DNA of 64,000 bases from assembly GCA_963920765.1 (NCBI GenBank), contig OY987249.1, positions 3,195,230 through 3,259,229 on the forward strand. Direction: 5' to 3'. Positions within the stretch are counted from its first letter, which is position 1. Each line of letters opens with the position of its first letter. This DNA comes from Ulota crispa (taxonomy: Eukaryota; Streptophyta; Bryopsida; Orthotrichales; Orthotrichaceae). Below are positions 917 to 64,000 of the stretch, in pieces. The translations under genes and the position numbers were made by a program. The notes under the pieces are model-generated. The model was not told the DNA's origin, did no database searches, and worked only from the letters and a program-made list of their open reading frames with translations.

Positions 917-1678
<762 letters not shown>

Positions 1679-2383: not shown

Positions 2384-4402
2384 TTGGCATTCACGTTGAA
2401 AATCATGTGAAATTCTAGAATCTAGAAAGTTGCATTTTCTCCAAGTAGTGAAATGATGAGGCATGAAATAACATTCCAAGGTAAGAATGCCATTAATTTG
2501 GGAAGAAATGCCCATTTTGTTAATAAACTAGGTTTAAGGTGATTACCTTAAATGGAAGTAGGTTTGAACTTTCAACAACATTTTTTTGGTACATGTGCTC
2601 TCACTTGAGAGGATGATTTTGCAAGGGACAAAATGTAAGTGGCTCAAGCCAAATCTGATACCTTTGACTCTGGCTTTTAATTGGTTTAAACTTTATAGAG
2701 AAACATTGGGTTTAAGGTGAAGTACAAATTGGGAATTTGGTTTTCCCAATTTAATAACTATGGTGTTTAAGGCAATTTAATTGTCGAAAATCCTAAATGC
2801 AAGATTTAGTATAATTTTCTCTTCTTGCCTTCTCTGTGTGGTAAGGTGGATTGTGGTTAGTGTTTTTTCTATTTTATGATAGAAATTCAAAACACAAATT
2901 AAATTTCCAAGAAAACTCGTAAGTCGTAATAGAAGAAATTTAAATTTATCGCATTTGTGTTTTGCAGTTTGATAAATGCATTGTGAGTGATTTTTTATAG
3001 TGTTTTATATATTTGAAAATGAAATGAAATCAATTAAGTCAAGTTTGTTACATGTATTTCTGCTTTTAAAAACTCACGATTGTGTTTTTCATTTGTTGTA
3101 CTTTTTGAAAGGATTATTTTATGTTATAATTTTGGCGCCTTTTAGTATAAAGTTCATTACTAGGCTTTGTAACTTTTCATAAAATTCACCTTTTTCTTTT
3201 CTTTTCTTTGTTTTAGTCTAGAGCTTCTACTTCTTTTCATTTTTTCTTTGGTGTATAAAAAAGCAACGTGTTGAAATTGCGATGCCATGAATAATTCTAA
3301 ATAAAACTCAGCAACAACCATACCCAGAAGGATCGCGCATCTAGTTTTTTTTCTAAGTACAAGCGTTAATTTCTCTTTAACACGATATTCATTAGATTGG
3401 GAAAAAAGGTAAATTTTGGGACTTCTAAAGGTTTAAGGTGATCACCTTAAACTAAGCTTTAACATTTTTTTGGTACATGTGCACTCACCTGAGTGGAGGA
3501 ATTTGTAAGGAAAAAATTCTTAGTGGCTCAAACTAAATCTGATACCTTCAAATCTAGTTTAAGGTGAGTTTTTTGGTTTCAAGTGAAATACAACTTGGGA
3601 ATTGCATTTTCCCAAACTAATGAATATCTTGTTCTTTGCACTAAATATGCTTTCCACTTTTTGTACTATGAACTTTTGGTTGTAACTTGTACGGCATGAC
3701 ACCAAAAACACATGGCCAATGGTAAATCAAAATTAGGAGATTTTGGTAAATGACATACACATAAAAAAAAATTTGGATTATAAAAGTTTTCATGAGAAAG
3801 ATGTATTATTGTGCATCAACGGACTCAATGTGTGAACAAGTGTTGCAACGAATAGTATCAAAGCCAATATTTAACTCAATTCTGGGCTTTTAATGTTTTT
3901 ATATCCTCAAAAGAGTATTTACAAAATCCTCTTCAAGTACATAGAATCCAGAAGTCTCAAATTTGATTTTTTTTCCAAATTAATGAATGCTGTATTAGAG
4001 GCATGGAGACGAGCATCTCCACTTGAAAACATTTGACTGGTGGGAAAGTGTAATACACATCAACAAGTGCTTCCGAGTTCCCAACCATGTTTTTGGTATA
4101 TTAACCAAACATCTTTTAAATTGATGAGTCAAAATGGGCATTGATGAAAAGAAAACATTGACTACCGGTATATGCAAGCACTTGAATTAACCAAGCACAT
4201 AATACATATTTTGGATAAAAGGAGAGTGGGAGTGTGATCTTATCTAATTGTTGCTTTTACAAAAGTTAACGCTTACCAAGTACAATGTATTACAGTAAAA
4301 GAGCAATTTTGTATTTGAACAAATGTTTTAGAGGTAAATGCAAATTGACAATGGGTGGATGTTTTGAGTATTTTATATAATAATACTTTTGGTTGAGCCA
4401 CA
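2384..4402. other. AT-rich gene-free stretch with a direct repeat pair
   Basis: No gene recognised. It contains two diverged direct copies of a roughly 210-240 bp sequence, near 2524-2760 and 3418-3625. Both include TTTAAGGTGAT, TTTTTTTGGTACATGTGC and a terminal TTTTCCCAA motif, so they look like members of a short dispersed repeat family. Confidence 0.5.
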
Positions 4403-5827: not shown

Positions 5828-7962
5828 TGTCTTGATGGAAATTTCTCCATCATGTAGATACTTGTTATTTATTTAAATTTGTGTTGATTTCAATAAATCA
5901 ACAGTTGAGGCAATAAGGGTGGTCGAAATAAGGACCACAATTTGGTGACAACGCAATGGCCATAGATTCTAGTGCGTTGCGTTATTTTGTCACATGCACA
6001 GCTCAAAGAGGTAGGTAGCGGATTGGCTGGACCAATTTCCTCCCTCACTACCTGCCAAGCTATGGGCCGCCATCACCGCTCAATAAGTCTGATGGCATTC
6101 GAATCCGAACCGACGGGCGGCCAGAGACGACTACTTCTCCAGCCAACCGAATCCACGACTTGGCAATTGAAAACAAGCATTTGATGCTATTATATGCCCA
6201 TAAGGGCACGTGACCACTTTTCGGTGGTGTTTATTTTGTAATTTAATCATTTTTATATGTTTATCTAGATGTTTTAGAAAACTCATATATTTTGTCTTTG
6301 TTTGAATAAAAAATACTAAGGCTTTAGAAGTGAATGAAAAAAGTGTGAAAGAAAAAGAGGTTTGGCATCTATGGTGAGGTTAGGATAGAGAGAGACATGG
6401 GCTGATTTGCTCCACCTCCTTATCTTAAATAGGGTTGAAATTAAAGAAGAGAGATTATTTAGTCGTTGGAAGTTAGTGTATGAATATTGGCGGGAAAAAA
6501 GTAAAAATTCCGAAATTTTGATATAAGAGAATTTTTTGTACATACATGATTTTAAATTAAAATTTAGAAAAATTATTCTTTATGTGAATACCTTTTTGAA
6601 ATAAGTTTAAAAATTTGATTTGAAGTTGTGATGCAAAAGTTATGAATGTTTGAATTTTGAAGTCAAAAAACCAAACTATGAAGAAAGGCTGTGACTTCGA
6701 CAAGCTATAGCTTATAATTTGTATATTATTTTGCAATAAGATTTAGAGGAAGTGTTTATCTTAGTCTTAGCTTTCTAAAAAGATTTTAAACTTGAGATTT
6801 AAATTTTGGAGGAGAAAGTTATAGAGGTATGAAGAATTGGAAGTAGTTGCTTTTTAGTTATGAGAATGCCAAAACTTTGAAGAGCTACAATTTTTGGATA
6901 GTATAAAATTTTCTTTAAAAAATTTAATAGTAATATTTTATTGTTATAGTTTTCCAAATTGTTTTCAATCATTTCATTTGGAGTCTTATTAAAGAAGTTA
7001 TAGTATGTAGACATTGGGAATTTGAATGCTCTCTAAAAAATTGAGACCCACACTTTGATTGACTAGATACTTGAACAAAATTTTATTATAAAGTGAAAAT
7101 TTTAGGAATTGTAGCCAGTAGTATTGTCTTTTCAAATTGATATTATATTTTTATGGGTGATGTGTTGAACAAAAATTACAAAGGTTTATAGAGGCAATGT
7201 TTAGTTTGCAAGGAGGTAGAAGATCTTTTACTTTAAACCCGCATAACTTTTGAACAATAGCTTAGATTGAGTTGAAATTTAAAAGAATGTTAAAAGGTTA
7301 GAAGAGTTTTTTAAATTGCTATTATATTTAGCATTTGGATTTTTGAAGCATTTATGGCACTAGATAGAAAGTCGCATTCTTTCTATGACTTGTTATTTGT
7401 GATTTTTTCCTATTATTTATATTAAAATACGAAGACTTGAAAATTTGAAGATATGAAGACTTCAAGAGGAATATTTTGGATTTATTATTTATGTATATGT
7501 GAAATGTAATTCTATTATTCTTAGTCGGTTTAAAGACTTGTTTGTCAATTTATTTCCATTTTGTTTTGTAAACCTTGTTGCGGATACTTTAGATTAAATC
7601 AAATTTAACCCCATTTATTGTCGTGGTGACAAAGTGGGATTGATCATCCACATGGTCGAAACTTGGTCTGTTCTCACGATTTGGAGTTTTGGCCAGTAGA
7701 TTGTGAATTTGATTTTAGGATTCTGTCATACGGATGGTAATTTCTGTCTGTTGTCCCAATCTACCCGTCCCGTATCCAGTGGGCTCTTATTCCTAATTTA
7801 GCATTTATACCCCTAGAGCTAGCTACAAAATAGACCAACAGAAGACTGAAGACTGAAGATTTGAAAAGTAAAAATTAAGAGCAGAGACGATTTTAGTTAA
7901 CAACGCACAATCGCAGCAAAACATCATGCGTGTTTCCAAGGCGCGCTCCTCTCAATCCGACA
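5828..7962 (-). repeat. LTR-like unit, left arm of a 4.3-kb palindrome
   Basis: About 2.13 kb, the reverse complement of the unit at 7983-10132 along its full length, with scattered substitutions and small indels. On the minus strand it starts TGTCGGATTGAGAGG and ends TTGATGG...GACA type sequence, giving the TG...CA ends of a long terminal repeat. No PBS, polypurine tract or gag/pol is attached, so identity as a solo LTR is inferred from ends and size. Arm divergence shows that it is not a recent duplication or assembly echo. Confidence 0.65.
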
Positions 7963-7982
7963 CCGTCGGATTTAGGTAACGA

Positions 7983-10132
7983 TGTCGAGTTGAGAGGAGC
8001 GCGCCTTGGAAACACGCAGGATGTCTCGCTGCGATTCGTGCGCTATTGACTAAAATTTTCTTCGGTTTTGATTTTCACTCTTCAAATCTTCAGTCTTCAG
8101 TCTTCCGTTGACCTATCTTGTGGCTAGTTCTAAGGGTATAAAAGACAATGTAGGGATAAAAACCCACTAGATACGAGACGGGTAGATCAGAACAGCAGAC
8201 ACGAGCCGCCGTCCGTATGACGGGATCCTAAATTCAAATTCACGATCTGCTGGCCAAAACTTCAGATCGTGAGAACAGAGCAAGTCTCGACCATGTGGGT
8301 GATCAATCCTACTTTGACACTACGACAATAAATGGGGTTAAATTTGAATTAATCCAAACTACCCGCAACAAAGTTTACAAAACAAAATGGAAATGAATTG
8401 ATAAACAAACCTCCAAAACTGGCTAGGAATAACAAAGCCACATCCCACATACATAAATAATAAATCCAAAATATTCTTCTTGAAATCTTCATATCTTTAG
8501 ATATTCAAGTCTTCATGTCTTCAGGTCTTCATGTTTTAATAAAAACAATGGGAAAAATCACAAATAATAAATCCTAGAAAAGCTGCAACCTTCTATCTAG
8601 TGCTACAAATGGCTTAACAATCCAAATGCTAAGTATAATAACAATTTGAAAAGCTCTTCTAGCCTTCTAATATTCTTCTATATTTCAAGTCAATCTAAGC
8701 TGCTGTCCAAAAATTATGCGGGTTCAAAGTAGAGATTTTTTTCCTCCTTGCAAACTAACACTGCCTCTACAAACCTCTATAACTTTTATTCTACACATCA
8801 CCTATAGAAACGTGATATTAATTTGAAAAAATGATATCACTGGTTACAATTCATAAAATTTTCAATTCAAAATAAAACTCTGCTCGTAAGTTCTAGTCAA
8901 TTAAAGTGTGGGTCTCAATTTTTTAAAAAGCACCCAAAATCCCAACTTCTACACATTATAACTTCTTCAATAAGACTCCAAATGGAATGATTGAAAACAA
9001 TTTGAAAATTTATGATAACAAGCTATTATTCCTAAAATTTTGAGAAAAAAATTTCATACTGTCCAAAAGTTGTAGCTCTTCAAAGTTTTAGCCTTCTCAT
9101 TATAAAAGAGCAGCCACCTCCATCCTTCACACCTTCATAACTTTCTCCTCCAAGCTTCAAATTTCAAGTTTAAAGACTTTCTAAAAAGCCAAGACTGAGG
9201 TTAATACTTTTTTAAAATCTTATTGCAAAATGATATACAAATCATAAGTTATGGCTTGTCAAAGTCTCAGCCTTTCTTCATAGTTTGACTTTTTGCCTCC
9301 AAAATTCAAACACTCATTACTTTTGTATCACAACTCCAAATCAAATTTGCAAACTCATTTTTGGAAAGGTAATCATACAAGAAACAACTTTTTCAAATTT
9401 CAATTCAAAATTATGTATACACAAAAAATTCTCTCCCATCAAAATTTTCGGGATTTTTCCTTTCTTCCCACCAACATTCATATACTAACTTCCAACTACT
9501 AAGAAATCTCCCCTCCTTAATTTCGACTCTATCTAAGGTAGGAAGGTGGATACATTAGCCCATGCCCCTCTCTATTCTAACCCTACCATAGATGCCAAAT
9601 CCCTTTCCCTTTCACACCTTTCCCATTAACTTCTAAACCCTTAGTATTTTTATTCAAATAAAGGCAAAATATATGAGCCTTCCAAAACATCTAGATAAAC
9701 ATATAAAAATGATTAAATTACAAAATAAATACCATTGTAAAGTGGCCACGTGCCCTTGCGAGCATATAATAGCGTCAAACGCTTGTCTTCAGTCGCCAAA
9801 TTGTGGACTTGGTTGGCTGGAGAAGCGGTTGTCTTTGGCCGCCCGCCGATCCAGGTTTAAATTCCATTGGACTCGTCGAGCAATGATGGCGGCTCACGGC
9901 TTGGCAACTACTAAAGCAGGAAATTGGCTCAATCAATCTGCTACCTATTCCCCTTGAGCTGTGCATGTGACACGACGGCGCAGCGCATTGGAATCTATGG
10001 CCGCTGCACTATCACCAAATTGTGGTCCTTACCACAACCACCCTTTTTGCCACAATTGTTGATTTATTGAAATCAACACAAACATAAATAAATAACGAGT
10101 ATTTACATGATAGAGATATCTCCATCAAGCCA
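7983..10132 (+). repeat. LTR-like unit, right arm of a 4.3-kb palindrome
   Basis: About 2.15 kb. It starts TGTCGAGTTGAGAGG and ends CTCCATCAAGCCA. It pairs with 5828-7962 across a 20-bp spacer (7963-7982) and also aligns end to end with the single unit at 51536-53688. A GTATAAAAG sequence near 8135 could be a TATA box if this is an LTR. Near the 3' end is a short segment (about 9790-9960) with tRNA-like A- and B-box resemblance on the minus strand. Short open frames inside are not conserved between copies and are not genes. Confidence 0.65.
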
Positions 10133-18165: not shown

Positions 18166-19644
18166 CCTCCATCCCCCCATCCATGTGCCTCCAATCCCTA
18201 TGGCCCCTCCCATTCTGTGCCCCCCATGCATGAACCTCCCCGTGACTCCTCCCATCCCCATGCCCCCCTCCCTGTGTTTGTGCCCCATCCTCATAATTTG
18301 GTTATAGAACCCCATGCCCTCCAGTCTCCCTAATTCAGTTTTAAAACCTCATGCACTCTCATCCCCATAATTTGGTTACGGAATTGTCATCCTTGGTCAC
18401 GGAATCATCATGGAAGAACTACGGCCTTGGACAAAATCTGATTGCATTTAACAATATATGCAGATGTCTTGCTAAAAACTACATCAATAATGATATTTCA
18501 TGTTTTCTTGTTTATAGAATTGTTTATCCTAATGATAAATTCACTTTAGTTTTCATTAGTTGGCAAATAGGGTCATCATCTTTTCTTCAACACTATTGTC
18601 CATGCCATATACCTTTTACTTTCTTTTTATCACACCCATTACCACAGCTTGAGGTCTCTACGTTTTAAATTCAAGTTTACTTATGTTTCCAAACAAATTT
18701 CATTGCATTTCCTGTCAATGTAGGTTTACTTTCTTTTTGGCATTAGCACCTTGTGGGTTATATTTTGATTCCGCTTTGTTTGCAAATTCATTTTTAAAAA
18801 GAGCTTACAACTTGCTAGCTCTGCATTCATTTTGCTTTGATGTACTTACCAACTTATTGTATTCACTCTTGTTTGTGTTTGTTGGTTTTCCATGTCAATT
18901 TCATTTCTTTCTTATAATAATTGGATTTGTGTTTGTTGCAAATTTACAATTTATCTTCCTTGCAATGTCTTTGATAGCAATCTTGCCTACCAACTTGCTC
19001 CTTTGACAACCTTCATTTCAATGTTGACAAGTCTCACAAGCATTACAATTCATTATTGTTTTTATAGAACGCTAATATACCATTTGCTTTAATGATACAA
19101 AAAGAGACAATTCATATACCCAAATCCTTTGCACCCATGCAAGTAAGGCTCTCTAAAAGTGTTTTTCGGAATAAAAAGGCACCAACTACACAAAAGTAAC
19201 ACAAAGGTGAAAATTGCAAAACAAAAGTTTCAATTACATTAGTGAGGATACACGCGTGGCACTTTCATTCAGTAGAAGCCCTCTTGCATTCAATTGAAGC
19301 TTTCTTGAAAGCAAAAAAAAAGTTTTACTCATGAAAGCTATGACTGGCCATAGCCACAAGCGTTTCAACATTATGTAATGGCTAAATTCTAAACTTGATG
19401 CTTTCGAACAATTCGAAAAGATAAGAGTCAAATGCTTATCAAAATTTATGTTTGAGCTGTCTTGGACTTTACTGCTGGCCCTAAACTTCATTCATGCAAT
19501 TTAATGTAAAAATCTTAAAGACAACATGCTGTTTATAAAAAGCTATATCAGAGTTCAAAGTAGTAGTTCATGGACATTTACAGTAATGATTTATTATTCT
19601 AGCCAAGTAGATTGACATTTTATCAAAATTGCATATTAGTTTAA
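18166..19644. other. C-rich then T-rich gene-free stretch
   Basis: 18166-18350 is pyrimidine-rich with repeated CCCCATCC, CCCCATGC and CCTCCC words. 18470-19090 is T-rich and opens hydrophobic frames (18351-18668, 18683-19006) that reflect composition rather than a protein family. No gene called. Confidence 0.45.
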
Positions 19645-19958
19645 AGGGAAAATTTCATGAATATTCCTGAAGTTTGCCGTATTTTCATAGATATCTTTGC
19701 TTTTTCAGAAATTTCACAAATATCCTTGGACCAAAATTTTCAAGCGTTTGTTTTGTTGTGTATGTCACTTTTTTTCTCCGTTAGTGCACACGCATAACAA
19801 GAAAGAAGTAGTGTGTGAACAAGGGGAGAAGGGAAGTGACATGCACAACAAAACAAACGCCTAAAATTTTTAATCCAAGGATATTAGTGAAATTTCTGAA
19901 AAGCAAGAATATCTATGAAAATATTGCAAACTTCAGAGGTACTCATGAAATTTATCCT
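19645..19958. mobile_element. Foldback miniature element, copy A
   Basis: The ends are long, imperfect inverted repeats: GGGAAAATTTCATGAATATTCCTGAAGTTTGC at the left is mirrored by GCAAACTTCAGAGGTACTCATGAAATTTATCC at the right, and the arms continue towards the centre. It is the same family as 34211-34527 and 46456-46889. It has no coding capacity, and the hairpin fold is typical of a MITE. Confidence 0.75.
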
Positions 19959-24380: not shown

Positions 24381-25436
24381 CTAAAGGAAGAATCGCCTCC
24401 TGCTGGTATCCATATCTGGTTTATGCACCCACTCATACTCACCATACTTAGAATCAAAAGTTCCCGACTGCAAACTCTGCAGTTTCAAAGTAAACCGAGG
24501 ACCGCACTCTTGAAGCCTCGCAATGACAGCATTTTTTTTCACAGTTTTCGGAAGCGCTTTCCTCGATTTCTTGTCACTGTTCACTCCAATTTCGACAGGG
24601 GCCAACTCCTTGATCTCCTTCTCCTCAAAAATGTACCTGTGATGCCGGAAGAAGATGAAGTCACGCTGGTTATGCAACGTCACTGCTCGCCTACCCCTAA
24701 ATTGAGGATCCTGAGGGAACACCGAGGCAAACAATCGGCCGATTCGATGCCCTAATCGAGTCGTGAAATTGTTCAGCAAAAGCTCGGGCATATGCGACGT
24801 CGGCTTCCCGTGTCCCTTGATCTTCTTGCTCAGCTGAATACTCGACAGCTTGAAATGCGCCGTCGGTCCCTCAGGCAAAGCCACCATGAGCAATCCATTC
24901 GGCTGTTTCCGATTCTCGTTCACAACAAACATCGACGTGAACTCCCGGTTGGATGCGTACTTCACAATCTGCTTCAAATCATACGAGCCGCGTTTATAGA
25001 AAGTTGCGTTCGGGATGACCGTGAGGAGCTCCTTAATAAAGGTACGCGTCGGAGCAGAACATTCCTGAGAAGTGGTGATTAAGAGCTTGGGAAGATGTGC
25101 ACGCGAGAAATGGTTACTGAACTCGTCCAGCCCGTCGTCGGCTTGAAGCTCCTCGTCGTCAGGAAGCGCCACCGTTTCATCGGCCTCGCGCGTATTCTCG
25201 ATCGTCCGTGGCACCTGCCGTGCTGGCGGCGCCTCCCCGAGCTCCACCGCCTGCCGTTCCGCTGTGTCGCGCACCTTTACTCTCTGCTTCTTCGCCTTGA
25301 TTTTCTCCGCTCGTACCTTTGCGTGCTCCGCCGACCGCTTGTGCTTGTTCTTGATCTGCGACGGCAGCTTCATGCCCGCCCTGCGTAGCGCCACCTCCCC
25401 CGCGTCCTCCTCATCGTCGCGCATGCGCTTCCCCAT
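24381..25436 (-). CDS. RPF1: Ribosome production factor 1 (RPF1), Brix-domain protein
   Basis: An intronless gene encoding 351 residues. RPF1 acts in the nucleolus in maturation of the large ribosomal subunit, with Brix-domain relatives such as BRX1, RPF2, IMP4 and PPAN/SSF. The N terminus (1-110) is basic, then acidic. The Brix domain runs from about 116 to 328, starting HLPKLLITTS and containing PNATFYKRG (142-150), VVNENRKQPNGL, PELLLNNFTTRLGH and TLHNQRDFIFFRHHRYIF. A lysine-rich insert of about 30 residues (277-305) precedes RLQECGPRFTLKLQSLQSG. The protein ends DTSRRRFFL, as is typical of plant and animal RPF1. The ATG at 25436 is chosen; eight codons upstream in frame there is only a GTG. 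Full length for the family and no defects seen. Confidence 0.95.
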   Translation of the reverse strand: MGKRMRDDEEDAGEVALRRAGMKLPSQIKNKHKRSAEHAKVRAEKIKAKKQRVKVRDTAERQAVELGEAPPARQVPRTIENTREADETVALPDDEELQADDGLDEFSNHFSRAHLPKLLITTSQECSAPTRTFIKELLTVIPNATFYKRGSYDLKQIVKYASNREFTSMFVVNENRKQPNGLLMVALPEGPTAHFKLSSIQLSKKIKGHGKPTSHMPELLLNNFTTRLGHRIGRLFASVFPQDPQFRGRRAVTLHNQRDFIFFRHHRYIFEEKEIKELAPVEIGVNSDKKSRKALPKTVKKNAVIARLQECGPRFTLKLQSLQSGTFDSKYGEYEWVHKPDMDTSRRRFFL

Positions 25437-25470
25437 GGCTCCCCCCTCCGTGTTTGCCACAAATTCTTCG

Positions 25471-25479
25471 AAACCCTAA
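25471..25479. promoter_or_regulatory. Telo-box (AAACCCTAA) upstream of RPF1
   Basis: AAACCCTAA lies 35 bp before the RPF1 start codon. In plants this motif is common in promoters and leaders of ribosomal and ribosome-biogenesis genes. Position and gene type fit; function here is inferred. Confidence 0.5.
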
Positions 25480-43800: not shown

Positions 43801-46455
<2,655 letters not shown>

Positions 46456-56600: not shown

Positions 56601-57889
56601 CCAAGTAGAATAACAGCAAGTTTTAACTCTAGGGATAGTCACAACTTCTCCAAGATTGAACTTCTATGAAGAATAAGAATTTGTGCAATGGAAATAAGAG
56701 CTAGTGGAAGCACTTCTCTATGAAGAAGGTGTACCTCCCCTTTTGTAGGTAGCAGAGAATGGAGTATGAGTTTTCCTAGAAAACAATGACGTAGTAAGAA
56801 AGCAAGTTGCATTCATGCACTCACTTGAGGTCTCCAACTACAAGGAGGATGAAAGCAAGAAGAGCAAGATGAAAAAGAGACACGCATTGGTAAAAACCTC
56901 ACATGCAAAAACTTTGTTATGCTCAAGTTTCTCAAGAAAATTGTTAATTTTAGAGAATGAAAACCTTGAAAATCAAGGAGAGAGTAGTGGTAGTCACGGT
57001 TGGTGTAAGATTGAGATTTCAGTGAAGATTGAGAAATGGCTGAGTTATTGTAGGAGCCAATGAAAGCACTTCTTCATGGAAGGAGGCGTGACACCCCTTT
57101 TGTGGGTGACGGAAGATGAAGAATGAAAGAATAGAGAATGTTTTACTTTGAGGAAGGCAACACGGCCACCGATTAGAGGAGCAGAAAAAGCAAGGGTCAA
57201 AAGTAGCTCACGAGCAAGAAAATGGTAAGACTTCTCACACAAAAAAAAATTCTCATGCCATTTCTCCACGCTTGGGAGATGAGAATTTTTTTTTCTCAAT
57301 CTTCACGGAATTGGCCTTGCGCCAGTTGCAGGCAGCTCGGCACGTAGGTTTTCTGTGAAGATTGAGAAAACAGAAACTCAATTGAACACCAAATTCATAA
57401 TTTTTGCACTTGGCCAAGTGCATTAAATGTACGGGAAAATTATTGCATTTTTCAAGTTTTGTAAATATGGTATACCAATTCTAGAAGAGGTTTCAAATTT
57501 TTTTGTTTGTAAATTGTGTAATGCAAACCTTCTACCTTCATCACCAATAAGGGAAGAATATGCATGATATGATAAAAACTACTTTTTGAATTTGAAAGAA
57601 TTATTATTCTATCAATATAAAATCAACCAAAATCTCAACTATTTAAACATACAATACACATATAACATATTGTTCTTTGCTTATCAAATTTTATTCCATT
57701 CATTTCAATAATTTTATCAGAACTCTCTACTTTATTTAAAAAACAAAACACTATCAATTTATTATCATTCAACCACAAACTTTGAACAAAAAAATACAAA
57801 GTCATCAAAGAAAAAATAGTACTTTGAATCTACTAAACTAAAAAAGCACACATTAGCTACCACAACTTTTTTTAATGTAGCCTATCACT
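53689..57889. other. AT-rich stretch with possible gene debris
   Basis: Holds two coding-like fragments (see 54043-54830) and a diverged direct duplication (about 56705-56790 against 57063-57130, both AAGCACTTCT...CCCCTTTTGT(A/G)GGT). The rest shows nothing I can name. Confidence 0.4.
54043..54830 (+). pseudogene. Possible decayed gene fragments of unknown identity
   Basis: A pyrimidine tract and CTGCAG acceptor-like site precede an open segment (54043-54225) reading DAATELLTTLILEDNLDIEF. Further on (about 54640-54830) a lysine/alanine-rich frame (VLAERAKIMKKALTW, KKEAFDIAKHETAAAAKAF) contains two in-frame TAG stops. Both have protein-like composition but match no family I know, and I cannot join them. 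They might be parts of a former gene or of a transposon. Confidence 0.25.
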
Positions 57890-60800
57890 TCAGTAATCCA
57901 CTATCTTTGGCGTCTCCGCAATAACCCTTGAAGATTGAGTTCCTATCTCTTCCCCTTCTTCAATATCCACTGATTGTGCAACAAGTACTGCGCAAACTTC
58001 AAGTGGAACTTCTAATTCAACTAAATCTAAAACCTCGTCAACCATAGCTTCCGCTTCTAAAGAAGGTGATTGATCCATGTGTGATGTCTCTTGCAAGACT
58101 GATGTGACTTGCTCAAAATTATACTGCCCTTCAATTCCAGTACGACAATATCTAATTCCCTCTTGATCGTAAAATAGTCCATCAACTCCTTCTGTCATTG
58201 CTTGATCTGCAGAAGCCCATCCAAAATCCATCCCAGAGAGCTGCGTATCTGTCGCCAACGTTACTGGTGTTGCACCTTGTGAGGTTGTTAATGTTGGAGG
58301 CAATATCACTTTTTCATATCCATCCACCTTATCTCTCATCTCTATATCCACCTCTGTAATAGGCTGAGGTTGAGCTAACTCCTCTAAATCCATGCCTTCT
58401 ATATTACGCCCTTGTGGATTTGCTTCTTCCTTGGCTATAACATGTTATGCAGGATGATCTTCCGTCTGAACTCAAACCATATGAGATAAAACGCCATGTA
58501 CACCGCTAATCGGCACTGTACCTATAATTTGTACTTCTCTTGATGGCATGCAAACCAACAATGTCTTCTTCATTTTCTTGGGTCTTTCTTCTTGAGGGAC
58601 AATTCTTTCTAATGAATCACTGTCTTGTTGAGATGAATTGTCATCTTCCTTTGATGAACTAGAAGAAGAATTTGAAGAATTGTCCTCCAAATTTGACGAA
58701 TCTTCTTTCGATGCTGATGAACTGTTCTCTACCTCATCTTCCTTCTCTTCATCATGTTGGCCTTCCACATAAGTTGGATCATTATCAATATCATCAGTCG
58801 CACCCATTTCTCCAATGTCATGGCCTTCTCTGACTGGTGTATCCTCTTAATGTAAATCTTCACCATCTTCTTCTTCATCATCATCTTCAACTTCTTCTTC
58901 ATCTTCATTTTCTTCTGTCCTTAGATATACCACACGAGATGATGAGGGTTCTGTATGAGATACAATGGTTGGTTGAGTCTCTTTTGCCCTTGGATTCTCA
59001 GTCACTTCTATCAAAGTGGTTGCTACTTGGATTCTTGTAGGATACACCTCTTGTAATGTATTGTACAAAAATTGAGTCCAATCTATGGAACCATCCAAGA
59101 CAATCACTTGACTACCAACATAGGAAGTTTGCACTATGTTTAATACTGCAGTTGTAATGCCCATTGCTACTAACCCCCAATTCTCCGGTAGGTATGTAGC
59201 AACCAACCTTTACAACTCCATAGGAGTTCTCTCTATTGGATCCACAATAGCAAGCATCATCCCTTCATTCTAAGAATCTGCGAACATTGCAGGTACTTGC
59301 TCACGACCTCCTTGCAGATTTTGTACCACTCTTGATGCACTAAGGTGCACCATCAAAATTGCAACATCTCCTACTGCTAGTACAGCACGCTCCGTTTGCC
59401 TATTATATCGCAAGTCATGAATGTACGTCGATGTTGTTTGCAATTTGAACACCCACATGCCTCTTTGCCAAGTACACTTTGTTGGCAAAACCATCTTCTT
59501 TCTTAGTTGTTCTTCAAAATATATTCCCGGTGGAAATAAAAACACAGCTGTCCATCTATGTACACCCACCATCTACTGTTGTAACTTTTCTAGCGCTGTA
59601 CCATACTCAACGTCAGTCCATACTTCATCTTCTTCTCTTGTCATGCATCGCCTGCAATCTAAAATCCACAAGCAAGGGCTTCCCAATGCTACTGCCCCAT
59701 CTGCAAAAAAGTCTCTTCTGCATCGAATAGGGATATTTCCAGTGTTGTTTTCTAGCGCGCTGCTTGGAATAGTTAGCTCCCAATCCCATCTCGCCTCATT
59801 AATATTTGTCACTTCTCTGCCATATCCATGATATCTAGATTCCCCATGCTGAATACTTGCATAATGATCTTTGAGCATTGGAGGTATAAGAAGATCAAAC
59901 CTCCTCAAAGCTTCAACTGTCCTCACTGTAGGAGATGACTAAACTTTCTTCATTTTATTGTCAACTGTTTTTGCAAGCACTTTCAGCTGTCCTTGATTTT
60001 GCCCTTCAAATCTGCGCACATTTATGAGGATAATATTATCCATAGTCCTCAGATGTGCATCTCCTGCCTTGACCATTAACCACCGTATGGCATTTCGTAC
60101 TGTTTCTCTCTGTTGAATCCGGTCTGTTATCCAAGCTAAGGTATCTTTCATTGGTACATTACTATTTGCATCGTTGAAAAAATATCTCTGTTGAGGGTGT
60201 TTGCCATCAATAATAGATTTAGCAGCCAATTTCTTTGCCAACCGCAGGTACTGTGCCTTGGGAACCCTTACAAGTGGTCTTAGCCAAATCCTTTCCATCT
60301 TCTTCGTGCCTTCTCTTACATCAATTCTTGGATCTAATGATTTCTGACTTGCTTACCTTTTCCATTTTTGAAAATCCTCTTTGCTGTACCAAAGATGACC
60401 TTCTTCATAGTCACGACAAACTTGTAAAACAGTTTTGTAAGCGGCTTCATCTTCTTGCCATGCATGACACGTCACCTCTGCCATCTTCTTGTAAACAACG
60501 TCCAAGGAAATATTGTTAGCAAAAGACCTTGTCCAATGCAAAGCACTGGCAGACATTGTTACAGCTCTTGCTCGTTGTGCATCATGAGCCTGTACTTCTG
60601 GATTAGGTCTACCACATGCTTTTCAAATGGCCCGCAACTTCACCAAATCCTCATTTAGTGTAGTATAAAAATCCCTTTCAAACTCCCTTGCATTTATTTG
60701 CACAGAAGCTTCAATGTATACTTTTGAATCATTGTATACAACAAATCGAGCCTTCCTCTGTGCAAATATCTTTTCATACTCCTCCTCAATCAATCCCACT

Positions 60801-62332
60801 TGGTTCTCCCTTTCCGCTTGCTTGCATGCTTCTACCACATGTTGACCATCAACAGGCTCCCAGATTATGTGGTCTTCTAACCAATTGATCCTTGATTTAG
60901 TGGGATTATTAGGAATTGCAATACCATGATGTAAGTATGCACCTTCAAATTCATTTGCGGCACCAACTTGTGAAAATGGAATCTCTCTTTGTGTTGGACC
61001 ACCATTTTCATCTACACCTTCCACAATGTAGGCAATCGGTCGTAACGTAAGTGGTGACATGTTGGACTCTTCTCTTCCACTAAGTCGTTTGTACATGGAT
61101 GTAACACGCTTATCTGTCAATGCTTGATGATTTGTCTCCACATTCTCCACTGTCCTAATGTTTGTAATTTTGGCATTGAAAACAAAATCCATTCCTCAAA
61201 TGTACCCTGCCAAATAATCATCGTTTGTTGGAAACCTTACAAGTGGACCAACAGCTGCCAAACCGTGAGCAACGCGGGTCTCTTCTTCTTCACTAGAGGC
61301 TGCATTGTTACTCTCAAATTCTTCATCATGTTGAACATCATTTCGTGCGGCGCTTACATCTCTACGTCTGGTACTTCTTCTCTTGACTAGAGTTACTCGT
61401 GGATGTACTTGGCGTTTGCTTTCCCTTGCTCCTCCAACTTCTGATGGAATTCTTGCTCCTCTTGAAGACCGTGGTCTTGCTAGCTGTTCTGCTGCCGCCC
61501 TTAATGATTCTGCTTGCATAGGTGGTGGCCGAGATAAGATGCTCACACCAGCACCTATAGACAACATTATACTAGTACCGCCACAGGGTGATGTCAAACC
61601 GCTATGTGGAACAACTCCTCCCAATATACCTTCTCTAGATGATGAAGCATCCACCAATCCCCCACGCGGCCTCTTTCCGCAATTGCTTCTTATTGTTTGG
61701 TGTCCCACAATTGTTGCAGAGAGTTCATTGTTTGCAGCATCTCTTATTGGAGAAGGTTGTCTACCACAATCTTCAATGGGCACAATAGGCACATTTACTG
61801 GAGCTGCAAGTATCCTATATATAGTATCAATCTCTTCAGGTTCGCGCGGTGGTGTTTTATCTCAAACACTAGAAGCATCCGTTCTCTGCATCTCTTCATA
61901 TGCTAAAGTTTCATGAACATATCGCTTAGCTTTCAAAACATCTTCTGGGCTCAATCTTAAGAACCTTTGTACTACTTCATTACGTGCATTTTGAAGTGAG
62001 TCTGGCATGGATGTCCAATGATCATGAAGTTTTTGTATAACCCTCATGGGATGGTCAACAGTCAAACAAATAGATGGAATTGGTGCCATCATCAAATTCC
62101 TCTGCAACTTAAATTGCATTGTACTTCCTCCTTCCATAACCACATTCATGAAAATCTGACCCTCCACACTAGTAGTAATGGATTGCAATTTTCCTTGCTC
62201 ATTGCCCAATGCGGACCAACGCCGCTCCTTCTGCATTGCATGCTCTGTAATCCACAATACTAGCGCATGTGCGTTTGTTGTCTGAAGCCACCATCCATAT
62301 TCAAGCCATTGGTTGTGTGTTTTGCGTGCCAT
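57890..62332 (-). pseudogene. 1,480-codon frame with eleven internal stops; ParB/Srx-like motif, unknown family
   Basis: Starts at an ATG in strong context (ACCATGG, 62332) and keeps one frame to a TGA at 57890. The eleven internal stops are TGA at 61862, 61196, 60623 and 58472; TAA at 60353, 59210, 58847 and 58445; TAG at 59939, 59573 and 59270. There is no frameshift. In order: a helical N-terminal region; a Ser/Arg-rich linker (about 61790-61390); a region with EPVDGQHVVEACK (about 60840), resembling the DGQH signature of ParB/sulfiredoxin-type domains; a long mixed region; then highly acidic Ser/Glu/Asp tracts (58900-58600) before a basic patch. Protein-like sequence continues immediately on both sides of each stop, so they are not intron borders. 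No terminal repeats were found. It could be a decayed element gene or a host gene relic. Confidence 0.6.
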
Positions 62333-64000
62333 GGTAAATTGATAATCCTATCAAAACAATGATCTTTAACACAAAATCATTAGTATTAGAACTTCACAAA
62401 AAAGGCCCATAACATTCTCAAATTGATTCATGGTAGCCACTTCTTTAGAATTTTGAAGTTCTCTTACTATTTTAAAGAAAAATATAAATTAAAAATATTA
62501 TTTATCATATGTAATTGTATAAGCATCTATTGTGTTGATAGATGAATATCTAGAAAGAATTTTGTGACAATGGACCACTTACATTATACAAAGTTTATTT
62601 ATTTTTTAAATAGAAAGCATTTTATTGCAATTTTGGCAACTAGATTATAACATAGTATTTAAAATCCTTTTGATGTTAAATTTTTGCTAATCAATATCCT
62701 AAACATTTAACATAATTATATTGAATCATTGAGTATCAAACTAAAACTTAAGAAGTACAATAAACAACATTACTTCTATACTTGTCAAAGAAAAACTTAA
62801 ACAATTTTGTTTAGCATATTTTGTGTTAGGCATGTATACAATTACCTTATTCATACACCTTGTATGAAATACAATATAACTAAGTCCTATTTGAATATTA
62901 CTTTGAAAAGCATAATGAACTGTATATAAAAATTGTCATTTCTATTTTCCATCCTAGAATTTATTAAGAAGGGTTATTTACTACATTATTTTTAACAACA
63001 ATGCTATAATTGTCTAAAAAAAATTGTTGAACTTTTACATTCATATTGGTAGTGCTAATTAAAATATTAAACAAAAAAAACCTTCCAATGTATTAATAAA
63101 TAGTGTTTCTAATCATAAATTTTTGATTTTAAAAAAAAGTAAAAACTCTTTCATTTCTTCTATCTTCAAAGATACCTTTAATTTTGATTGTAAATATTGT
63201 TAGTTCTGGTCAACAACACGTACCTCAAAGAACAAAACTAGAATATATAAGTAGGTTACAACTGCTGATGAGAATAAGGATCTATTTTCCTTATACCTTT
63301 ATTTATACTAGGTCTAGATTACTTTACTTTGCTTTTACTTTACTTTTACTTTACTCAGATTCATATCCGCTTTGTTAGTACATATTAGGGCATGTACGTG
63401 TCTTTTCCATGACAATTATGGTCAACAACATAAAATCAAATAAAAATGTCATAAACATGATTTTACATCTATTGTATACACATCATTATTATTTAGGCCT
63501 ACAAATTAACATGGACTCAAGTAATTGATCATGACAAGGAATTCTAGATGCCTTATAAGCCTTGTTGTATGTTTGGATTTTGTATTATTCACGTGATTAT
63601 TCACTAAAATCAAGGAAGATGTACTTTGTATTCATGTCTTGGTTTTTCTTGAAAACTATTATATTGTATATAAATGTTTACAAAATTGACACGTAGCATC
63701 TTCAAATCATATCTATACAATTATACTTTCAACCAAAACATATTACATTTCAAAAATATAACACTTTTGCAATTACAATATTAAGATGATTGATATGGAA
63801 AGTTCCTCATTAATCCATACTCTTAGAAAGCAGTCAACAACTTTTGCTTGTAGTCAACACATCAACATATACTGAGATTTTTCACATTCAACCCAATACA
63901 TTCTTTACACTAATGCATTTCATTAACAATAAAGAAAACACAATTAAAGAAACCGTAGGCTTTCAAGTTCAATTTATATTTACATTCAAATATGCAAATC
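62333..64000. other. AT-rich gene-free stretch upstream of the long frame
   Basis: Very AT-rich with no open frame of substance. It would hold the promoter of the minus-strand frame if that was ever a gene. No LTR or inverted-repeat end was recognised. Confidence 0.45.

What the first reader, a model, noticed from the sequence alone, without database searches (positions are those of the whole stretch)
57890..62332. 4.4-kb reading frame without frameshifts but with eleven stop codons
Sequence shows: all segments between stops lie in one frame over 1,480 codons, and protein-like sequence resumes at once after each stop. Random decay normally adds indels along with substitutions. Every stop can be explained by a single C-to-T change on the coding strand (from CAA, CAG or CGA) or, for TAG and TGA, G-to-A from TGG. 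Inference: deamination of methylated cytosines in a silenced element is the simplest reading. Suppression or transcript editing of the stops is possible but unlikely for a nuclear gene.
Basis: partly seen in the sequence, partly recalled or inferred. Interest (0 to 1): 0.7.

Follow-up and report, generated by a model that had tools for sequence, protein, structure and literature searches.

The report
Dead gene of a giant plant transposon
The 4.4-kb frame is a real, formerly functional gene of a large jumping-DNA family in a plant genome that is now dead and collecting mutations; the stop codons are ordinary decay, but the transposon family, with its very large protein of unknown kind, may be undescribed.

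Summary
In detail: a minus-strand frame of 1,480 codons (62332 to 57890), eleven internal stops, no frameshift. It is a repeat: four copies at 87-92% identity, three at 67-71%, 14 more distant loci. Each close copy has its own stops (11, 9, 8, 15, 22). At each of the window's 11 stop sites at least two of the four close copies have a sense codon. Seven stops fit C>T/G>A, three need transversions, one is unresolved: methyl-cytosine decay is the main source, not the only one. dN/dS is 0.46-0.85 within subfamilies, 0.26-0.35 between them: a selected protein whose copies die after insertion. The frame belongs to a 30.4-kb DNA transposon (window 57385 to beyond 64000) with inverted ends, probable 4-bp target duplications and a DUF7869 gene at the other end on the opposite strand. 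The 13 best DUF7869 domains are all paired with this frame in one layout. No library match to the 1,480-residue protein reached a cut-off; ParB-like and methyltransferase-like resemblances are weak leads. Suppression or editing of the stops is unsupported.

The parts
57890..62332 (-). Decayed 1,480-codon gene with 11 internal stops (codons 157, 379, 570, 660, 798, 920, 1021, 1041, 1162, 1287, 1296)
57385..64000 (-). The part of the 30.4-kb transposon (C8:3252614-3283034) that lies in the window; the rest lies beyond the window end
57385..57407 (.). Terminal inverted repeat at the gene's 3' side; 18 of 23 bases match the other end at C8:3283034
57405..57422 (.). 18-bp perfect palindrome TGCACTTGGCCAAGTGCA next to the terminus; a 25-base motif that contains it, with up to 3 mismatches, occurs 40 times in the genome, 0 times in the reversed control
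57380..57384 (.). Probable target-site duplication (CAATT in gene orientation), repeated at the far end
60626..61195 (-). Conserved piece (codons 380-569) with a VDGQH motif; ParB-like reading is a recalled lead only
58943..59938 (-). Codons 799-1130; faint resemblance in motif order to beta-class DNA methyltransferases, catalytic DPPY motif absent; not established
58523..58891 (-). Acidic, serine-rich low-complexity stretch (limits approximate)

Best explanation
The frame is a dead copy of a large protein-coding gene carried by a giant two-gene DNA transposon family of this plant genome. Shown: repeated copies, inverted ends, a DUF7869 gene at the other end on the opposite strand, long-term protein selection followed by nearly neutral decay of each copy. 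Inferred: the DUF7869 protein is the transposase that cuts the element at its palindrome-bearing ends; the 1,480-residue protein is a second transposition protein (end-binding partner or anti-silencing factor); after insertion the host methylates the element, and deamination of methyl-cytosine plus ordinary mutation makes the stops.
For: Copies and ends. Pairing: ranks 1-13 of the DUF7869 list all lie 12.6-46.5 kb from a match to this frame, on the opposite strand, in the same layout; of ranks 14-40, 0 of 27 lie within 80 kb; chance is about 0.8% per locus within 50 kb (which was given the first 40 rows plus 8 later rows that I picked, of about 150 listed, and 22 big-frame loci merged from the 27 rows). 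Selection then decay: dN/dS 0.26-0.35 between subfamilies A and B, 0.46-0.85 within; private substitutions of the window copy fall 27/27/32 on codon positions. Decay route. At the five TGG-derived stop sites, TGG is kept in 3 or 4 of the four distant copies looked at.
Against: Target duplications are uneven: exact 4 bp in 2 of 6 (c2, c4), 3 of 4 bases in c7, exact 5 bp in c1, 3 bp in c3, 2 bp in c6. Two of the eight copies c1-c8 (c5, c8) lack the canonical layout. Within-subfamily dN/dS is below 1, so part of the divergence predates death. No intact copy of the big gene was seen: every full-length match to codons 380-569 except the window's own has stops inside. DUF7869 is uncharacterised; its transposase role is inferred. 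Methylation was not measured. Transversion stops and the mild shortage of indels are not explained by methylation.
Confidence: 0.88

Rival explanations
1. The stops are read through (suppressor tRNA, recoding) or removed by transcript editing, so that the gene still works.
For: One unbroken frame over 1,480 codons; 10 of 50 stop sites among the five close copies are shared by two to four copies, e.g. 157, 403, 529, 570, 1021.
Against: 40 of 50 stop sites are private to one copy; 9 of the 10 shared ones sit at CGA-type or TGG codons, as repeated methyl-C decay predicts (the tenth, 1480, is TAC in relatives); private substitutions are spread 27/27/32 over codon positions, i.e. no sign of protein constraint; the stop number fits neutral expectation.
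Confidence: 0.03
2. The segments are exons and the stops lie in introns of a living gene.
For: Plant genes have introns; the DUF7869 gene of the element may have one.
Against: In the copies, similarity runs up to the codon before and resumes at the codon after most of the stop sites, with one codon between, and relatives have sense codons there.
Confidence: 0.02
3. A directed mutation process (RIP-like or cytidine-deaminase attack) made the stops in one event.
For: 65 of 86 private substitutions are C>T or G>A.
Against: In this copy rates are highest at CG, then CHG, and lowest at CHH, as for methylation; 14 reverse transitions and 7 transversions also occur; 3 of 11 stops are transversions; the other copies decay separately.
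Confidence: 0.05
4. The repeats are segmental duplications or remnants of an integrated virus, not a transposon.
For: The six elements with both ends found are very long (about 25-52 kb) and copies are few.
Against: Homology stops at inverted termini at different places in the genome; no relatives of either gene piece in IMG/VR or phage records, in searches that reach close relatives only for IMG/VR; ten further frames of 91-155 aa in the parts of c1 and c6 upstream of the big gene match no Pfam family.
Confidence: 0.06

Closest known systems
VANDAL / Mutator-like elements of Arabidopsis with VANC (PMC5735166, abstract read; PMC10398659, search listing only)
   Same: Plant DNA transposon with a second protein of its own besides the transposase; target of DNA methylation.
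   Different: No VANC or MULE family matched the pieces scanned with Pfam; the anti-silencing role here is only a guess.
KDZ transposons with a TET/JBP gene (PMC12730594: title and start of abstract in a listing, plus a term search whose only passages were in the reference list)
   Same: DNA transposons that carry a companion gene acting on DNA marks.
   Different: No TET/JBP or KDZ family matched the pieces scanned here; the term search of that paper found 'moss' 0 times and 'DUF' only in an author's name.
Fungal Starships with DUF3723 (PMC11623301, one passage)
   Same: Giant transposons with a recurring extra protein; one distant copy gives a sub-threshold DUF3723 match (E 0.082, 12.0 bits against a cut-off of 22).
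   Different: Starships use a tyrosine recombinase (listing and recall); here there are inverted ends and DUF7869. The direct DUF3723 search of this genome did not complete.
Pfam PF25273 (DUF7869)
   Same: Gene near the far end of the element, E 2.1e-46 in copy c6; 157 matches in the genome, a lower bound.
   Different: Among ranks 1-40 only the 13 top-scoring ones lie near the big companion gene; no paper in the held library mentions DUF7869.

Membership tests
DNA transposon with terminal inverted repeats | Matching inverted ends in the same element | tested here: met
   15-22 of 23 bases match between the two ends in 6 of 6 elements with both ends found
DNA transposon with terminal inverted repeats | Target-site duplication of fixed length | tested here: inconclusive
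   Exact 4 bp in 2 of 6, 3 of 4 bases in 1, exact 5 bp in 1, 3 bp in 1, 2 bp in 1; of 30 cross-pair controls 0 reach 4 of 4 and 5 reach 3 of 4
DNA transposon with terminal inverted repeats | Copies at unrelated places with sharp ends | tested here: met
DNA transposon with terminal inverted repeats | Encodes an active transposase | not testable with these tools
   DUF7869 domain present; activity needs an assay; the window copy's own DUF7869 is broken by a frame change and stops
Beta-class N6/N4 DNA methyltransferase (for codons 799-1130) | Profile or fold match | tested here: inconclusive
   Model of mean pLDDT 39. Foldseek: no row at E 0.001 or better; 25 of 50 rows shown are beta-class or METTL3 methyltransferases (best E 0.056), 11 are LINE-1 endonucleases. 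VIA-align: none of the 50 rows shown is a methyltransferase of this class. hhalign probability under 1%, no better than an unrelated piece used as control
Beta-class N6/N4 DNA methyltransferase (for codons 799-1130) | Catalytic (D/N/S)PP(Y/F/W) motif | tested here: not met
   Absent at the place where YhdJ and most of six phage enzymes have it or a close variant; the family reads LWxFDCR there (placement is my judgement)
ParB/DGQHR-like domain (for codons 380-569) | Profile or fold match | tested here: inconclusive
   VDGQH seen in the alignment (that it is a family motif is recalled); no Pfam, NCBIfam or PDB match of use, PHROG best E 0.013 in one member; model mean pLDDT 56, no fold match at E 0.001
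Methyl-cytosine decay of a silenced repeat | Excess C>T/G>A, strongest at CG and CHG | tested here: met
Methyl-cytosine decay of a silenced repeat | The element is methylated | not testable with these tools
   needs bisulfite or nanopore data

The most novel reading that the evidence does not exclude
A previously undescribed superfamily of giant (about 25-50 kb) plant DNA transposons whose obligate two-gene core is a DUF7869 transposase and a 1,480-residue companion that fuses a ParB-like domain to a catalytically dead DNA-methyltransferase-like domain, serving to find and mark the element's palindromic ends or to keep host methylation off the element.
Probability: 0.25. Interest if true: 0.75.

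Novelty: new variant of a known kind. Interest (0 to 1): 0.42.

Why it matters
The stop codons are ordinary. What they led to is a family of giant plant DNA transposons with a consistent two-gene layout and a huge companion protein that the curated libraries tried do not recognise. If the companion protein acts on DNA methylation or end recognition, the family is a new place to study how plant transposons escape silencing. The many aligned dead copies also give a clear record of how such genes decay (CGA to TGA in one copy, to CAA in another).

Tried and rejected
Pfam and NCBIfam scans of the big protein's pieces: nothing at or above a curated cut-off; PHROGs (which have none): best E 0.013 in one member. 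The strongest sub-threshold Pfam match, SR-25 (E 0.00015), covers the low-complexity stretch. PDB by sequence: nothing of use. Ten further frames of 91-155 aa in the parts of c1 and c6 upstream of the big gene: no Pfam match at 0.01; not every frame was scanned, and the leftmost 6.5 kb of c1, with its DUF7869 gene, was never read except for its last bases. Viral and phage collections: no relatives of the DUF7869 protein or of the conserved piece. Structure models were too poor to name a fold. Methyltransferase reading: motif order and half of the Foldseek rows suggest it; LINE-1 endonucleases also rank high, and VIA-align and profile comparison do not support it. DUF3723 search of the genome: not completed. 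Papers: 0 with DUF7869; searches listed no paper whose title or shown abstract describes such an element; those papers were not read, apart from the term search of PMC12730594.

I considered whether the palindrome motif marks one transposon: many hits among L034-L056 belong to other end types; whether they carry the gene was judged only by their distance from the big-frame loci and not followed further.
Full report
What is there. The reading frame is real. On the minus strand an ATG at 62332 opens a frame that ends at a TGA at 57890-57892, with eleven internal stops; the other five frames hold 53 to 113 stops. The window lies in a 275-Mb genome of 157 contigs (G000, C8:3195230-3259229). A psaA/psaB-type piece at 43801-44493 (PF00223, E 2.4e-98) suggests a plant or alga with plastid DNA in its nucleus; that it is a moss is my guess from assembly size and layout and was not tested.

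Copies. A DNA search finds four close copies (c2 on C6 92%, c3 on C4 88%, c4 on C3 87%, c5 on C11 87%) and three distant ones (c6 on C1, c7 on C2, c8 on C8; 67-71%) plus fragments. A protein search with codons 380-569 adds 14 more loci at 28-61% identity; a search with codons 661-797 finds some of them again. The close set (subfamily A, c1 to c5, c1 being the window) and the distant set (B, c6 to c8) each share long flanks on the gene's 5' side, and homology ends about 500 bases after the gene (in c4 the last 500 bases are displaced by about 2 kb and in c5 the last 300 are inverted).

Stops. Aligned codons in c2-c5 at the eleven stop sites: TGG at 379, 798 and 920 in four of four; at 570 TGG in three and TGA in c5; at 1021 TGG in c3 and c4, TAG in c2, TGA in c5; CAA at 1041 in four of four; at 157 CAA in c2 and c4, TGA in c3 and c5; TAT at 660 in four of four; TCA or TTA at 1162; GAA, GAA, GAT, AAA at 1296; CAG, GGG, GGG, AGG at 1287. 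So 7 of 11 fit C>T or G>A (157 by inferring CGA), 3 of 11 need a transversion, and 1 of 11 is unresolved. That any stop can be written as one C>T or G>A from CAA, CAG, CGA or TGG is true of all three stop codons and proves nothing by itself. Each close copy has its own set of in-frame stops: 11, 9, 8, 15 and 22, 65 in all at 50 sites; 40 sites are private to one copy and 10 are shared by two to four. At several sites the copies show CGA, TGA and CAA side by side (403: CAA in c1, TGA in c2-c5 and c7, CGA in c6 and c8; also 312, 529, 746, 870 and 1087). That is what a methylated CpG does when it decays on one strand or the other. Of the 10 shared sites, 9 are of this kind or TGG; the tenth (1480) is TAC in relatives.

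Mutation spectrum. At 3,387 sites of the frame where all four other copies agree, c1 has 86 private substitutions: 65 C>T or G>A, 14 T>C or A>G, 7 transversions, spread 27/27/32 over codon positions. Per site the C>T rate is 12/59 at CG, 10/117 at CHG and 43/1044 at CHH in c1; in c2 it is 5/57, 12/119 and 23/1027, so there CHG is as high as CG. Drawing random substitutions from c1's own rates over 697 codons where the four others agree gives 3.6 stops (95% range 0 to 8); 5 are seen there. For c2 to c5 seen and expected were 0 and 2.9, 2 and 4.9, 4 and 7.7, 5 and 8.9, all below the mean and within the ranges. There is no excess of stops.

Indels. In c1 one private indel (3 bp, in frame) lies in the 4.4-kb frame, against 8 private single-base indels, and 4 that could not be assigned, in 7,546 aligned bases upstream; about 4.7 would be expected by simple scaling. 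The upstream DNA is richer in A and T, which may raise its single-base indel rate. The shortage is mild. Copy c2 has 3 private indels in the frame, and c2 and c4 change frame.

Selection. Nei-Gojobori dN/dS is 0.46-0.68 among c1-c5, 0.62-0.85 among c6-c8, but 0.26-0.35 between the two sets, and 0.11-0.19 in codons 380-660 between them (synonymous distances between sets exceed 1, so these ratios are rough). The protein was under selection while elements moved; copies then evolve with little constraint. Values under 1 within sets mean that part of that divergence predates the loss.

The element. The right end of c1 is at window 57385; the other end was located by a coordinate search with c6's left end and read from small fetches: C8:3283034. 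The element is thus 30.4 kb, most of it beyond the window; its leftmost 6.5 kb was not read apart from about 100 bases. Both ends were found for 6 elements (c1, c2, c3, c4, c6, c7); their 23-base ends match at 15 to 22 positions. Flanking duplications: exact 4 bp in c2 (ATAC) and c4 (GCAC), 3 of 4 in c7, exact 5 bp in c1 (CAATT), 3 bp in c3, 2 bp in c6; of 30 cross-pair controls 0 reach 4 of 4 and 5 reach 3 of 4. Next to the right end lies the palindrome TGCACTTGGCCAAGTGCA; a 25-base motif that contains it, with up to 3 mismatches, occurs 40 times in the genome and 0 times in the reversed control. Many of those hits are other end types.

The second gene. Near its left end c6 has a 490-aa open frame with Pfam DUF7869 (PF25273, E 2.1e-46). 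The genome has 157 DUF7869 matches, a lower bound. The 13 best-scoring ones all lie 12.6 to 46.5 kb from a match to the big frame, on the opposite strand and with the same layout; of ranks 14 to 40, 0 of 27 lie within 80 kb (which was given the first 40 rows and 8 later rows that I picked because they lie near copies, of about 150 listed). The partners of c1 and c4 are among those later rows and have the same layout. The DUF7869 gene of c1 (C8:3281025-3281598) is broken by a frame change and stops. In c5 and c8 the canonical partner is missing.

What the big protein may be. No library match reached a curated cut-off and PDB sequences gave nothing of use. Reading the alignments I saw two possible resemblances, both from memory: VDGQH followed by a predicted helix at about codon 495, as in ParB/DGQHR proteins; and, at 800-1130, the order of motifs of beta-class DNA methyltransferases without their DPPY. 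AlphaFold models were poor (mean pLDDT 56 and 39). For the second, Foldseek put beta-class methyltransferases at the top (best E 0.056, not significant; 25 of the 50 rows shown, beside 11 LINE-1 endonucleases), but VIA-align did not, and hhalign with an alignment of YhdJ and six phage enzymes gave under 1%, no better than an unrelated piece, although its only aligned stretch was the one I had expected. The ParB-like piece had no fold match. I treat both as leads.

How it most likely worked. The DUF7869 protein probably cut and joined the ends; the companion, found near all 13 top-scoring DUF7869 genes and under long selection, probably helped, by binding the ends or by countering silencing as VANC does for VANDAL elements (PMC5735166, abstract). 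After insertion, host methylation and neutral mutation destroyed each copy. Copying, ends, pairing, past selection and present decay are shown; methylation and the roles of the two proteins are inferred.

Verdict. Observation confirmed; the deamination reading is partly right; the frame is a fossil gene. The family it belongs to was not found described in the searches made, which cover only an open-licence library and were read as listings.

Noticed in passing
L026:340-3547 (C1:1202623-1205830) against the A copies on C8, C6, C4, C3: The left end and the DUF7869 exon are 85-89% identical between subfamilies A and B, while the next stretch is 70-77% and the big gene about 68%. This looks like a swap of the left module between subfamilies.
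   Followed up: partly
L026:2526 (C1:1204809): Copy c6 is continuous where 15 other copies show a gap of about 190-220 bp (c1: 2.4 kb) at one and the same point of the DUF7869 gene: possible precise loss of an intron in c6.
   Followed up: no
L034-L056, e.g. C1:4098206, C3:9022118, C6:6988020: A different family of ends (about CTATTTTTGCACTTGRCCAAGTGCA) shares the palindrome with this element; no big-frame locus lies close to them.
   Followed up: partly
C11:6184727 (copy c5): The last 300 bases of c5 are inverted relative to the other copies.
   Followed up: no
C1 copy c6, about 11.4 kb apart (c6 extended 7852-8454 and 19291-19891): A 600-base direct repeat at 85% identity, one copy just upstream of the big gene.
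   Followed up: no
window 43801-44493: psaA/psaB-type (plastid) fragment in nuclear DNA (PF00223).
   Followed up: no
window 24384-25475: Open 364-aa frame with a full Brix domain (PF04427), probably a ribosome-assembly factor gene without introns.
   Followed up: no
window 996-1652: Long simple repeat of TA/TACA type, open in all six frames.
   Followed up: no
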